A DNA stretch of 64,000 nt from Actinomycetota bacterium. GTDB lineage: Bacteria > Actinomycetota > Actinomycetes > Streptosporangiales > Streptosporangiaceae. The first letter of the stretch is position 1. Each line of letters begins with the position of its first letter. The stretch is from positions 1 through 64,000 of the forward strand of contig PMSU01000020.1 of the NCBI GenBank assembly GCA_003168255.1, in the 5' to 3' direction. Positions 40,807-47,937 of the stretch are shown here, in pieces. The position numbers and the translations under genes are program-made. The notes beneath the pieces are model-generated. The model saw only the letters and a program-made list of their open reading frames with translations, did not search any database and was not told where the DNA came from.

Positions 40807-40958
40807 CTATGCACGGCATGCCCCCGGTCCTGACCCGGCTGTGGGTCAGGCTGTGGATGAGCCGGTGGAGAAATGACCAGTATCGGGGGATAACCCGGTC
40901 CGTTCTGTGGACGACATGTGGACAGCCAGAAAATCATGAGAATACTGGCCGGAAACCC

Positions 40959-40988
40959 TTGTGCCGTGCTGTCGGTAGGCAGTAAAAA
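40959..40988 (+). promoter_or_regulatory. Candidate promoter of structured RNA
   Basis: TTGTGC (40959-40964), an 18-base spacer and TAAAAA (40983-40988) lie just upstream of a run of hairpins and would start transcription near 40995. The -10 is AT-rich against a GC-rich background. Neither box is a perfect vegetative match. Confidence 0.4.
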
Positions 40989-40994
40989 TGCACT

Positions 40995-41190
40995 CACCAC
41001 CGGAAACGGTGACCAGGCCGGGGGCAACCCCGGAACACCGGAAAGGCCGGGAAACCGGCAGTTTAGGTGGGTCGCTGGCCCTGGTGACAGGTCGCGCAGT
41101 GCACCGCTGCCGGGCAACCAGCTTGCTGGTGCCGCGAGACTGGGCGGGGCCCCTCCATCTCATACATGGAGGGGTCCCGCCTTATTCTCT
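40995..41190 (+). ncRNA. Candidate structured noncoding RNA with tetraloop hairpins
   Basis: About 190 bases with no convincing reading frame contain a series of compact hairpins: CACCG-GAAA-CGGTG (40998-41011), CCGGGG-GCAA-CCCCGG (41018-41033), GCCGG-GAAA-CCGGC (41046-41059), CCTG-GTGA-CAGG (41080-41091), each with a GNRA loop; then GGC-A-ACCAG-CTTG-CTGGT-GCC (41113-41133) and a terminator hairpin at 41143-41181. Four GNRA loops in 95 bases, a promoter-like pair before and a terminator after point to a real RNA. The IS110 remnant downstream raises the option that it is a relic of an IS110 bridge RNA. A free-standing small RNA is equally possible. Confidence 0.5.
41143..41187 (+). terminator. 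Strong terminator-like hairpin
   Basis: GGCGGGGCCCCTCCAT and ATGGAGGGGTCCCGCC pair over 16 bp with one G-U, loop CTCATAC, followed by TTATTCT. It is the strongest simple hairpin in this region and closes the candidate RNA. On the opposite strand there is no T-run. Confidence 0.65.
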
Positions 41191-41429
41191 ATGTCCATTC
41201 TCCCCCGCCACAACGCCCCGTACTCACACCGACACGCGGGCAATAAATCAGGCGCAGTTCCTCCGTCACGCAGCCTGGCCATTGCAGTTAGCGTTCCCGG
41301 GTTTCTGATCTGGTACGCGGCGGCATTCGGCCGCAGTGCGGACTGCCACCGCCATCTGCCGGGCTGTTTTCACTGCGACCGCCGTCCCGGCCCCCAGACT
41401 GTTTCGACGACTGCCGTTCCGACCTCTCT

Positions 41430-41684
41430 GGGCTGCTAGGCGACGCCTGCAGCAGGCGCGGCAACCGCCGGCTCAAGAACGCAATGTCCCTCGCCGCCTT
41501 CGCGTCCCTGCGCGACCCATCCTCCAATGCCTTCTATGACCGCAAGCGGGCCGAGGGCAAACGCCGCAACGCCGCCCTGATCTGCCTGGCCCGCCGGCGC
41601 TGCGACGTCATCCTGGCCATGCTCCGCACCGGCCAGCCCTACCAGCCCGCCCGGCCAGGGATCGGCCTGGCCGAAGCAGCCTGA
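41430..41684 (+). pseudogene. IS110-family transposase, C-terminal remnant
   Basis: The frame reads 'GNRRLKNAM', 'LAAFASLRDPSSNAFYDRK', 'GKRRNAALICLARRRCDVI' and 'LAMLRTGQPYQP', which is the conserved end of IS110 transposases (the Tnp_20 domain). Only about 80 residues remain; the DEDD N-terminal domain and the catalytic Ser region are absent upstream. No clear element ends were found. The 41182-41429 stretch before it holds no recognisable gene. Confidence 0.75.
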
Positions 41685-41731: not shown

Positions 41732-42325
41732 ATGAACGCTGACTATCCCGAGAACCTGCTGGCAAGGGAACCAGCGCCCCCATACCAGGGAGAAGGTCCC
41801 TTCGCCCTGTGGCACTTCAGCGAAAACGCGGCTCTCAGCCAGTTCCGGCCGCACACGCCGACCACCAACCCCACGGCGCCGCCGCTGGTCTGGGCAGTCG
41901 ACACCCGCCACGCGCCGACTTTCTGGTTCCCGCGGGACTGTCCGCGAGGATGCATCTGGCCAGTATCGGCGACCACAGCCGAAGACCGCGAACGTTTCTT
42001 CGGCCAAAGCGGCACCAGCCGCATCCATGTCATCGAGGCCAGCTGGCTGGAACGGATGCGGGCCTGCCACCTCTACACCTACCGGCTGCCCGCCGAGACC
42101 TTCCGGCCGCACGAGGTCGGCGGCTACTGGGTCACGGACCAGCAGGTGGAGGCAATCGAGCGAGTCCTCATCGATGATCTCCTGGCCCGGCACGCGCACG
42201 CCAGGATCGAACTTCGGATCACACCCTCCATCTGGCCATTCTGGCGGCAGGTCACCGGCTCAACCATCGAGTTCAGCGGCTCACGGCTGCGCAACACCGC
42301 CCCACACCCTCAGCAATTCAGCTAG
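41732..42325 (+). CDS. DUF6886-like protein
   Basis: A 197-residue soluble protein with the pattern 'LWHFSENAALSQFRPH', 'VWAVDTRHAPTFWFPRDCPRGCIW' and 'RIHVIEASWLERM', which I associate with the DUF6886 family of unknown function. The Trp/Phe/His-rich N-terminal half suggests a compact beta-rich domain. No signal peptide or membrane helix. ATG 41732 is the only good start. It stands between an IS110 remnant and a degraded regulator region, in an accessory patch. Confidence 0.75.
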   Translation: MNADYPENLLAREPAPPYQGEGPFALWHFSENAALSQFRPHTPTTNPTAPPLVWAVDTRHAPTFWFPRDCPRGCIWPVSATTAEDRERFFGQSGTSRIHVIEASWLERMRACHLYTYRLPAETFRPHEVGGYWVTDQQVEAIERVLIDDLLARHAHARIELRITPSIWPFWRQVTGSTIEFSGSRLRNTAPHPQQFS

Positions 42326-45724: not shown

Positions 45725-46020
45725 CCGGGAACCGCCGGGCCGGGCCGTGGCTACGCCACCTAATCCAGGTCCGCAGCGTGACGTGCACTTTCTCTGACGG
45801 CTGCCGCACGTAGCCCGGCATCCTTTCCGGCTGGAGACCGGTACCTGCGGTTTGGCCGCGCTCGGGTCGCCTTCGCCCCAGATCGCATGGTCTGATAGCC
45901 ATCGTCTGATTGTGACCACAGTGAGCCTGAGATGCATTCGTTTACTGTTATTGTCTTGATCATCCGATGCCCAGGTGCGGCTCACGTTTGGCGTCGCTAA
46001 CTCATTCCGGAGGGAAGCTG
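45725..46020. other. HNH-domain relic and promoter of the sedolisin gene
   Basis: Positions 45725-45813 carry the frameshifted beginning of an HNH domain. Beyond it, 45890-45965 is AT-rich ('TTCGTTTACTGTTATTGTCTTGATC') and is the likely promoter of the protease at 46021. TCTGAT occurs twice (45890 and 45904 region). No gene is seen. Confidence 0.4.
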
Positions 46021-47937
46021 ATGCGCACTCGAGGTCATATCAGCACCGCGGTTCTCGCGGTGACGGCGGCATCGGCGCTGTTCGGGAGCGGAGTGGCCAG
46101 CGCGGCAACGATCCGGACGGGAAACGGCGCACGCGAGGTGCTGGCCAGCACAACACCCGAAGCTGGGCAGGATTCCGCACTGAGCGTGCTGCCGCTGACG
46201 AGCCGGGTACGCGTCAGCGTATTTGTCGGCCGCGATCAGGCGGGCCTCGCGGCACTGGCGAAGGCGGTGTCTGATCCGGCGAGCTCGCAGTATGAGCATT
46301 ACCTCAGCCCCGGGCAAGTCCAGGCGGGCTTCGGCGCCACGGCTGCCCAGCAGAGGGCAGTCAGCGGCTGGCTGCACGGATCCGGCCTGGCAGTGACGCA
46401 CCACGACGGATTCGTCATCTCCGCGGCTGGGACTGTGGCGCAGGCGGAGTCGGCGGTGCAGGCGAAGCTTGAGCTGAGCCGCCCCAGGAACGCTGTTGAG
46501 CAGGTCGTGTCCACCCAGGCGATGTCGGTGCCGATGTCAGTCGCCGGCTCGATCAGCACGATCCAGGTGGCTCCGGCGGCTGCTGCGATGGGTCAGCACG
46601 AGCCGATGAAGAAGCTTGTCGGCGTGGCGCCGGGCTCGAAGCCCGCAGTGAAGATCCAGGAGCAATGCTCGAGCTTCTATGGCCAGAAGAAGGCCAGCCA
46701 GGTGCCGGGCGCCTTTGGCAAGACGCTCGCCTGGGCTCCGTGCGGGTACCTGCCGACACAGCTCCGGCGCGCGTACGGCGCGACGAAGTCCGGGCTGACC
46801 GGAGCCGGCGTCAGCGTCGCGATCCTGAGCGAGGACAACGACTCGACCGCGCTCAGCGACGCTAACCGCTGGGCCAAGTCTCGCAACTTCCCGCCATTCG
46901 CGCCCGGCCAGTTCACGGCCAACATCGCCAAGGGCGCCTACAACGGCGTCGGCGATGGCGAGAGCGCCCTTGACGTCGAGTCCGTGCATGGTATGGCTCC
47001 CGCCGCACGGGTCAACTACGTCGTCGGGAACGGCGACATCACCGGCGACTTGCTGCTTGACGCGCTCGACACGGTCGTAACCTACAAGATCGCGGACGTC
47101 GTGAGCAGCTCGTGGTTCGAGGGCTACATGCCCGTGCCGCAGAGCATGATCGACGCCTGGGAAGGCGTGCTGCAACGCGCCGCTGTCGAGGGCATCACCG
47201 TCAACTTCGCCACCGGCGACTACGGAGACAGCACACCGCTGCAATACCCGGGATCAGACCCCTGGATCACCACAGTCGGCGGGACGAGCCTAGCCATCGG
47301 CGCCAAGGGCAACGCCCTGTGGGAGACCGGCTGGGAGACCGACGAAGCTGGGCTCAGCCACGACGGCACGACCTGGAACCCCGCGCCTCCAGGCAACTTC
47401 CTCGAGGGCAGCACGGGCGGCATCTCCAAGACGTTCGCCGAGCCCTACTACCAGGACGGCGTTGTGTCCGGGAACGTCATCGGCGGAAAGGCCATGCGGG
47501 ACGTGCCCGACGTGTCGGACCTCGGCGACTGGAACCTCGGCTACCAGATCGGCCTGACGATTCCCGTCACGAAGCACAGGTTCAAGTACATCAATGCCGT
47601 CAATGGCGGCACCAGCTTGTCATCGCCGATGTTCACTGGGTTCGAGGCGGACCTGATCCAGGGCCGTGGCGGCATCTCGCTGGGGTTTGCCAACCCGGCG
47701 CTGTACGACCTCGCCAACACCGCTGCGTTCCACGACATCACTAACAACCCGCAGGGCCAGGGCGTCACCGAAGCCGACGTGTACGGACCGGCTTACGATC
47801 AGGGACCGACGTTGTCCACCATGGGCCAGTGCGCGAGCACGAAGCATCTGGCCTGCGGCCCGGGCTATGACACCGTCAGCGGAATCGGTTCTCCCGGACC
47901 GGCGTTCTTCAGCTCGTTCGGCTCCCGGCCGAAGTAA
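46021..47937 (+). CDS. Secreted S53 (sedolisin/kumamolisin) peptidase
   Basis: A 638-residue acid-type serine-carboxyl protease precursor. Signal peptide (1-28, ending GVASAA), a pro-kumamolisin activation domain (about 50-190, 'YEHYLSPGQVQAGFGATAAQ'), then the catalytic domain. Catalytic Glu and Asp are in 'GDGESALDVESVHGMAPAAR', the oxyanion Asp in 'FATGDYGDS', and the nucleophile Ser in 'NGGTSLSSPMF'; the C-terminal Ca-site region has 'GPGYDTVSGIGSP'. All triad parts are present. Start 46021 has GGAGGG upstream; the track start at 45967 adds 18 residues before the signal. An insert with two Cys follows the propeptide ('QEQCSSFYG', 'WAPCGYLP'). Confidence 0.93.
   Translation: MRTRGHISTAVLAVTAASALFGSGVASAATIRTGNGAREVLASTTPEAGQDSALSVLPLTSRVRVSVFVGRDQAGLAALAKAVSDPASSQYEHYLSPGQVQAGFGATAAQQRAVSGWLHGSGLAVTHHDGFVISAAGTVAQAESAVQAKLELSRPRNAVEQVVSTQAMSVPMSVAGSISTIQVAPAAAAMGQHEPMKKLVGVAPGSKPAVKIQEQCSSFYGQKKASQVPGAFGKTLAWAPCGYLPTQLRRAYGATKSGLTGAGVSVAILSEDNDSTALSDANRWAKSRNFPPFAPGQFTANIAKGAYNGVGDGESALDVESVHGMAPAARVNYVVGNGDITGDLLLDALDTVVTYKIADVVSSSWFEGYMPVPQSMIDAWEGVLQRAAVEGITVNFATGDYGDSTPLQYPGSDPWITTVGGTSLAIGAKGNALWETGWETDEAGLSHDGTTWNPAPPGNFLEGSTGGISKTFAEPYYQDGVVSGNVIGGKAMRDVPDVSDLGDWNLGYQIGLTIPVTKHRFKYINAVNGGTSLSSPMFTGFEADLIQGRGGISLGFANPALYDLANTAAFHDITNNPQGQGVTEADVYGPAYDQGPTLSTMGQCASTKHLACGPGYDTVSGIGSPGPAFFSSFGSRPK

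What the first reader, a model, noticed from the sequence alone, without database searches (positions are those of the whole stretch)
40959..41190. Candidate new structured RNA with four GNRA tetraloops
Directly visible: four perfect short hairpins with GNRA loops (GAAA, GCAA, GAAA, GTGA) within 95 bases, then a CTTG-capped hairpin and a 16-bp terminator hairpin with a T-rich tail. A promoter-like TTGTGC-N18-TAAAAA precedes them. No reading frame looks coding. Chance makes a run of such loops unlikely. The segment GGGCAACC...GGTGCC recalls the SAM-I core, but the rest does not fit. It lies 250 bases before an IS110 transposase relic, so a relic of an IS110 bridge RNA, or a novel sRNA, are the leading ideas.
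Basis: partly seen in the sequence, partly recalled or inferred. Interest (0 to 1): 0.75.

Follow-up and report, generated by a model that had tools for sequence, protein, structure and literature searches.

The report
New actinobacterial structured RNA family
A short stretch of a soil actinobacterium's DNA encodes a folded, non-protein-coding RNA of a family not found in the public RNA-family library, present in many related bacteria with its own unusual on-switch and off-switch, but with a job that is still unknown.

Summary
Window 40990-41182 (+) is one of three copies in this genome of a stand-alone structured RNA, about 190 nt long, which no family of Rfam 15 matches. I collected about 80 copies from at least six families of Actinomycetes, including Trebonia kvetii and Actinoplanes isolates. 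They share a sigma-70-type promoter, a three-way-junction domain with two GNRA-capped arms, a second GNRA-capped bulged hairpin, and an intrinsic terminator.

All 27 pairs of the first domain show double compensatory changes (300 cells against 86 in shuffles). Some copies carry extra GNRA hairpins. The other two, and the CTTG hairpin, are local folds that compete with conserved helices.

Two features are unusual. An array of DnaA-box-like TGTGGA repeats, about one helical turn apart, lies upstream (148 seen, 2.8 expected). The terminator loop CUCAUAC is kept while its closing pair varies.

There is no shared neighbour gene, and the downstream gene is often convergent, so it is not a cis-riboswitch. 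The IS110 relic occurs beside no other copy, so it is not a bridge RNA. Best reading: a trans-acting protein-binding RNA whose transcription is gated by a TGTGGA-box protein, plausibly DnaA. No transcript has been measured.

The parts
40840..40922 (+). array of TGTGGA-type (DnaA-box-like) direct repeats: TGTGGG 40840, TGTGGA 40852, GGTGGA 40864, GGGGGATAAC 40885-40894, TGTGGA 40906 and 40917
   Evidence: sequence; conserved positions, 148 TGTGGA seen against 2.8 expected upstream of the copies
40930..40957 (+). A-tract region upstream of -35 (AAAATCATGAGAAT...GGAAACC), family consensus AAAGAATCTTGA at about -30 from the -35 hexamer; possible UP element
   Evidence: position frequencies over 70 copies
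40958..40989 (+). sigma-70-type promoter CTTGTGC - N17 - GTAAAAAT, family consensus CTTGYGC...GTAGAAAT
40998..41086 (+). three-way-junction domain: P1 40998-41003/41081-41086, P1b 41007-41014/41070-41077, P2 41018-41023/41028-41033 (loop GCAA), P3 41036-41039, 41041-41043, 41046-41050 with 41055-41059, 41062-41064, 41066-41069 (loop GAAA)
   Evidence: covariation in 67 distinct sequences
41090..41141 (+). P4: bulged hairpin capped by a GNRA loop (GCCGG GCAA CCAGC, about 41109-41122, one mismatch here; family consensus GCCGA GCRA UCGGC)
41142..41182 (+). intrinsic terminator, 17-bp stem, loop CUCAUAC at 41159-41165, short T-rich tail
41230..41239 (+). conserved downstream CGACACGC motif, typically 37-39 bp beyond the hairpin in other copies
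   Evidence: exact in 21 of 74 copies; function unknown

Best explanation
This is a stand-alone, trans-acting structured RNA gene of a previously undescribed actinobacterial family. Shown by comparative sequence: its own promoter, a conserved three-way-junction domain, a GNRA-capped second hairpin, a terminator with an invariant loop, 1-3 or more paralogues per genome, and an upstream array of phased TGTGGA boxes. Inferred: a box-binding protein, most simply DnaA, controls when the RNA is made. The released RNA of about 190 nt (longer in some copies) then acts in trans by binding a protein through its GNRA-capped arms, as a scaffold or sponge, because the number of GNRA hairpins varies between copies while the cap is kept. 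The invariant CUCAUAC terminator loop is a second contact site, for an mRNA or a protein.
For: Covariation: 27 of 27 pairs with double changes, 300 cells against 86 +/- 9.6 shuffled, score 0.526 against 0.231, collapse when slid by 1-3 columns; first seen in 12 of 27 pairs with 14 sequences. Three copies in this genome; 21 of 299 genomes of the family, 14 of 395 of the class, only the own genome among 397 drawn across the phylum. Named carriers. Promoter and upstream boxes conserved; mean 1.2 boxes per copy with at most one mismatch to TGTGGATAA against 0.011 expected, nearly all on one strand. The tight TGTGGA pair occurs at seven places in the own genome, five of them at the three RNA genes and one beside rhomboid and peptidyl-prolyl isomerase genes with perfect TTATCCACA boxes. 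Loop conserved in copies found through the 5' domain alone. GNRA hairpins 2.85 per copy against 0.19 expected, up to 7. Diverse neighbours, often convergent, with syntenic positions between genera.
Against: No transcript, protein partner or target has been measured. DnaA is inferred from the box sequence alone; another TGTGGA-binding regulator would fit equally. Only 15 of 70 copies hold a perfect TGTGGAYAA box. In Trebonia kvetii the tight-pair pattern did not mark the RNA promoters, although looser GTGGATAAC boxes are there. Neither the sponge nor the scaffold mode was tested.
Confidence: 0.5

Rival explanations
1. It is a lineage-specific functional equivalent of Ms1 or 6S RNA: an abundant RNA that binds RNA polymerase and tunes its amount or activity.
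For: Similar length, own strong-looking promoter, stand-alone gene, Actinobacteria. The published synteny search found no Ms1 in Frankiales or Geodermatophilales (PMC9130861), where this RNA occurs.
Against: No Rfam 6S match up to E = 10. Ms1 and 6S are described as one long bubbled hairpin (Ms1 with two extra short hairpins), not a three-way junction with GNRA arms. The HAD-hydrolase flank of Ms1 is absent at the copies examined. Two to three paralogues per genome.
Confidence: 0.15
2. It is a cis-acting riboswitch or attenuator whose terminator controls a downstream gene.
For: Compact folded domain directly followed by an intrinsic terminator. Trebonia and Actinoplanes copies share a downstream glyoxalase-like gene.
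Against: No conserved downstream gene; in most of the examined loci the next downstream gene is convergent. No Rfam match.
Confidence: 0.1
3. The DNA element is what matters: a DnaA-titration or DnaA-reactivation site (like datA or DARS of E. coli) whose transcript is secondary.
For: Phased DnaA-box-like array beside an A-rich region; one of the two other tight pairs in the genome is a perfect-box site.
Against: The RNA covaries strongly and keeps promoter, terminator and loop, which a titration site does not need.
Confidence: 0.08
4. Relic of an IS110 bridge RNA.
For: An IS110 transposase tail lies at 41484-41684.
Against: The tail is beside no other RNA locus. No match in the plasmid or phage collections, and none for the terminator pattern in viral contigs. 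Syntenic chromosomal positions.
Confidence: 0.01

Closest known systems
Ms1 RNA / 6S RNA
   Same: stand-alone abundant-type regulatory RNA genes of similar length; Ms1 is actinobacterial
   Different: different secondary structure; no Rfam 6S match; flanking genes differ; several paralogues with an upstream TGTGGA array
CsrB/CsrC/RsmZ sponge RNAs
   Same: variable number of similar capped hairpins, own promoter, intrinsic terminator
   Different: caps are GNRA rather than GGA motifs; a fixed three-way-junction core is present; no CsrA link shown (comparison from general knowledge)
CcnA noncoding RNA of Caulobacter (PMC8959179)
   Same: a noncoding RNA that acts on master cell-cycle regulators (title), a precedent for an RNA tied to the cell cycle
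   Different: different phylum; no structural similarity tested; a link of the present RNA to DnaA is inferred only
IS110 bridge RNA
   Same: structured RNA near an IS110 remnant in the window
   Different: no IS110 tail at any other copy

Membership tests
Any Rfam 15 family | covariance-model match at the gathering score | tested here: not met
   none in the window; nothing meaningful up to E = 10; 20 homologous loci gave only a tRNA
IS110 bridge RNA | association with an IS110 transposase | tested here: not met
   tail found beside the window copy only
IS110 bridge RNA | two guide loops matching target and donor DNA | not tested
   made moot by the failed association test
SAM-I riboswitch | Rfam SAM model match and a downstream methionine or SAM gene | tested here: not met
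   no match; neighbours unrelated
6S RNA | long hairpin with central bubble; Rfam 6S match | tested here: not met
   three-way junction; no match
Ms1 RNA | flanked by HAD hydrolase and oxidoreductase genes | tested here: inconclusive
   no HAD neighbour at the copies examined, but the window copy has a luciferase-like monooxygenase upstream
Ms1 RNA / 6S RNA | binding to RNA polymerase | not testable with these tools
   needs immunoprecipitation
Type of element: stand-alone structured RNA gene | conserved structure with compensatory changes | tested here: met
   27 of 27 pairs
Type of element: stand-alone structured RNA gene | own promoter and terminator, no fixed neighbour gene | tested here: met
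   by sequence only; transcription itself not measured
CsrB-type sponge | repeated hairpins bearing the binding motif of one protein | tested here: inconclusive
   repeated GNRA hairpins, 0-7 per copy; no protein known

The most novel reading that the evidence does not exclude
An RNA made under direct control of the replication initiator DnaA through a phased box array, whose terminator loop CUCAUAC mimics the methionine tRNA anticodon loop (CUCAUAA; variants keep a pyrimidine, CAU and a purine), so that it couples replication status to translation initiation.
Probability: 0.07. Interest if true: 0.88.

Novelty: new variant of a known kind. Interest (0 to 1): 0.6.

Why it matters
Rfam 15 has no model that matches this RNA, and it occurs across several families of soil Actinomycetes, including cultured strains in which it can be tested. 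Its promoter carries a regular TGTGGA (DnaA-box-like) array that is rare elsewhere in the genome, which makes a link between chromosome replication and a noncoding RNA directly testable. A conserved loop inside a transcription terminator is also unusual and points to a function of the terminator hairpin itself.

Tried and rejected
IS110 bridge RNA: the tail is confirmed but present at no other copy. Known Rfam families: none. Phage or plasmid origin: no match. Cis-regulator: neighbours diverse and often convergent. Coding: promoter-to-terminator lengths of similar copies run 194-205 in all residues modulo 3, and the pairs covary. Published description: seven literature searches in the open library found none; most subscription journals are not covered. 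A direct pair of DnaA boxes (TTRTCCAC twice within 30 bases) was not found in the assembly, so the boxes could not be compared with oriC. RNAalifold over the whole P4 region recovered only the apical hairpin, so the base of P4 rests on single-sequence folds. The search that gave the named organisms required the terminator loop, so loop conservation was re-tested on copies found by the 5' domain alone.

Full report
Observation. No Rfam family matches it at the gathering score, and nothing meaningful appears up to E = 10.

Homologues. A DNA search found two further copies in the same genome, in tandem at G000:C134, and matches in 16 of 100 genomes (own included or not, as the tool counts), some also in tandem. 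Aligning 14 copies of the 5' domain gave a three-way junction in which 12 of 27 pairs showed double changes. A covariance model found three copies in the own genome at E below 1e-17, 21 of 299 genomes of the family, 14 of 395 of the class, and among 397 genomes drawn across the phylum only the own one. A scan with the terminator pattern named carriers: Streptosporangiaceae, Frankiales, Geodermatophilaceae, Jatrophihabitans, Pseudonocardiales, Nocardioidaceae and Sporichthyaceae assemblies, and the isolates Trebonia kvetii 15TR583, Actinoplanes subtropicus and Actinoplanes sp. KI2.

Structure. With 77 model-aligned copies (67 distinct), all 27 pairs show changes on both sides; 300 cells are compensatory against 86 +/- 9.6 in shuffles, and the score falls from 0.526 to about 0.1 or less when partners are slid. 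The alignment was fitted to the model and so leans towards it, but the 14-sequence MAFFT alignment, made before the model, gave the same helices. Conserved helices are P1, P1b, P2 (GNRA), P3 (GNRA) and the apical part of P4 (GNRA), then the terminator. Some copies carry extra GNRA hairpins (up to seven counted).

Control region. About 80 copies share CTTGYGC - N - GTAGAAAT, A-tracts upstream, and boxes of the type TGTGGAY(A/G)(A/G) at about -117, -106, -52 and -41, plus GGGGATAAC at about -72, from the -35 hexamer: 148 TGTGGA against 2.8 in shuffles, spaced about one helical turn. They resemble DnaA boxes (TTATCCACA or TTGTCCACA read on the other strand), nearly all on one strand. The tight pair occurs at seven places in the 7.15-Mb assembly, five at the three RNA genes; one other lies between a rhomboid-protease-type gene and a small membrane-protein gene, near a peptidyl-prolyl isomerase gene, and has perfect TTATCCACA boxes (gene names by eye). 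From general knowledge such genes lie close to oriC in many Actinobacteria; this was not verified here. That DnaA binds the boxes at the RNA genes is inference.

Terminator. The 7-nt loop CUCAUAC is constant while the closing pair is U-A, A-U, G-C or C-G. Among copies found only through the 5' domain, 20 of 32 gave exactly this loop and six more a close variant; most of the rest are other, longer-stemmed hairpins chosen by the script, and several of those copies do carry the loop. The same hairpin ends a few other genes (L004, L028). It resembles the methionine tRNA anticodon loop (general knowledge); this is a lead only. A CGACACGC motif follows at about 38 bp in many copies.

Neighbourhood. 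Neighbours are unrelated, but positions are shared between genera with flanking proteins of about 50-85% identity: amidohydrolase (hutI-like) / flavin reductase, etf-like / DUF2332, and nadD-rsfS region / M48 peptidase (hutI, etf, nadD and rsfS named by eye). Vertical inheritance therefore explains at least part of the distribution. It was not found in phages or plasmids.

Mechanism. Shown by sequence: gene-like unit, conserved RNA fold, conserved control sites. Inferred: expression gated by a TGTGGA-binding protein (DnaA the first candidate), and action in trans through GNRA-capped arms and the constant loop. The existence of a conserved noncoding RNA family I hold at about 0.95; the mechanism as stated at about 0.3; 0.5 is the joint score given.

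Noticed in passing
window 41484-41684: C-terminal remnant of an IS110-family transposase (68-74% identical to plasmid copies, some annotated as IS110), with no association with the RNA elsewhere.
   Followed up: yes
L004 1502-1526; L028; L029; L126; L138: The same terminator hairpin with loop CTCATAC or CTCATGC without the RNA promoter upstream, in L004 and L028 just behind protein-coding genes; possibly remnants of RNA copies or shared terminators.
   Followed up: partly
L144 4848-5384 and L114 6433-6966: Trebonia and Actinoplanes copies share a glyoxalase-like gene directly downstream of the RNA although the organisms belong to different families.
   Followed up: partly
L156 (G000:C11 about 102840): Inverted pair of perfect DnaA boxes TTATCCACAGGCTGTGGATAATGATGTGGA between a rhomboid-protease-type gene and a small membrane-protein gene.
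   Followed up: partly
window 41230-41239: CGACACGC motif about 38 bp past the terminator in many copies across families; no explanation.
   Followed up: partly
window 41732-42325: DUF6886 protein downstream of the RNA (Pfam E = 1.6e-60).
   Followed up: no
window 45967-47937: Large secreted-looking protein that reads like a pro-kumamolisin (S53) protease; identified by eye only.
   Followed up: no
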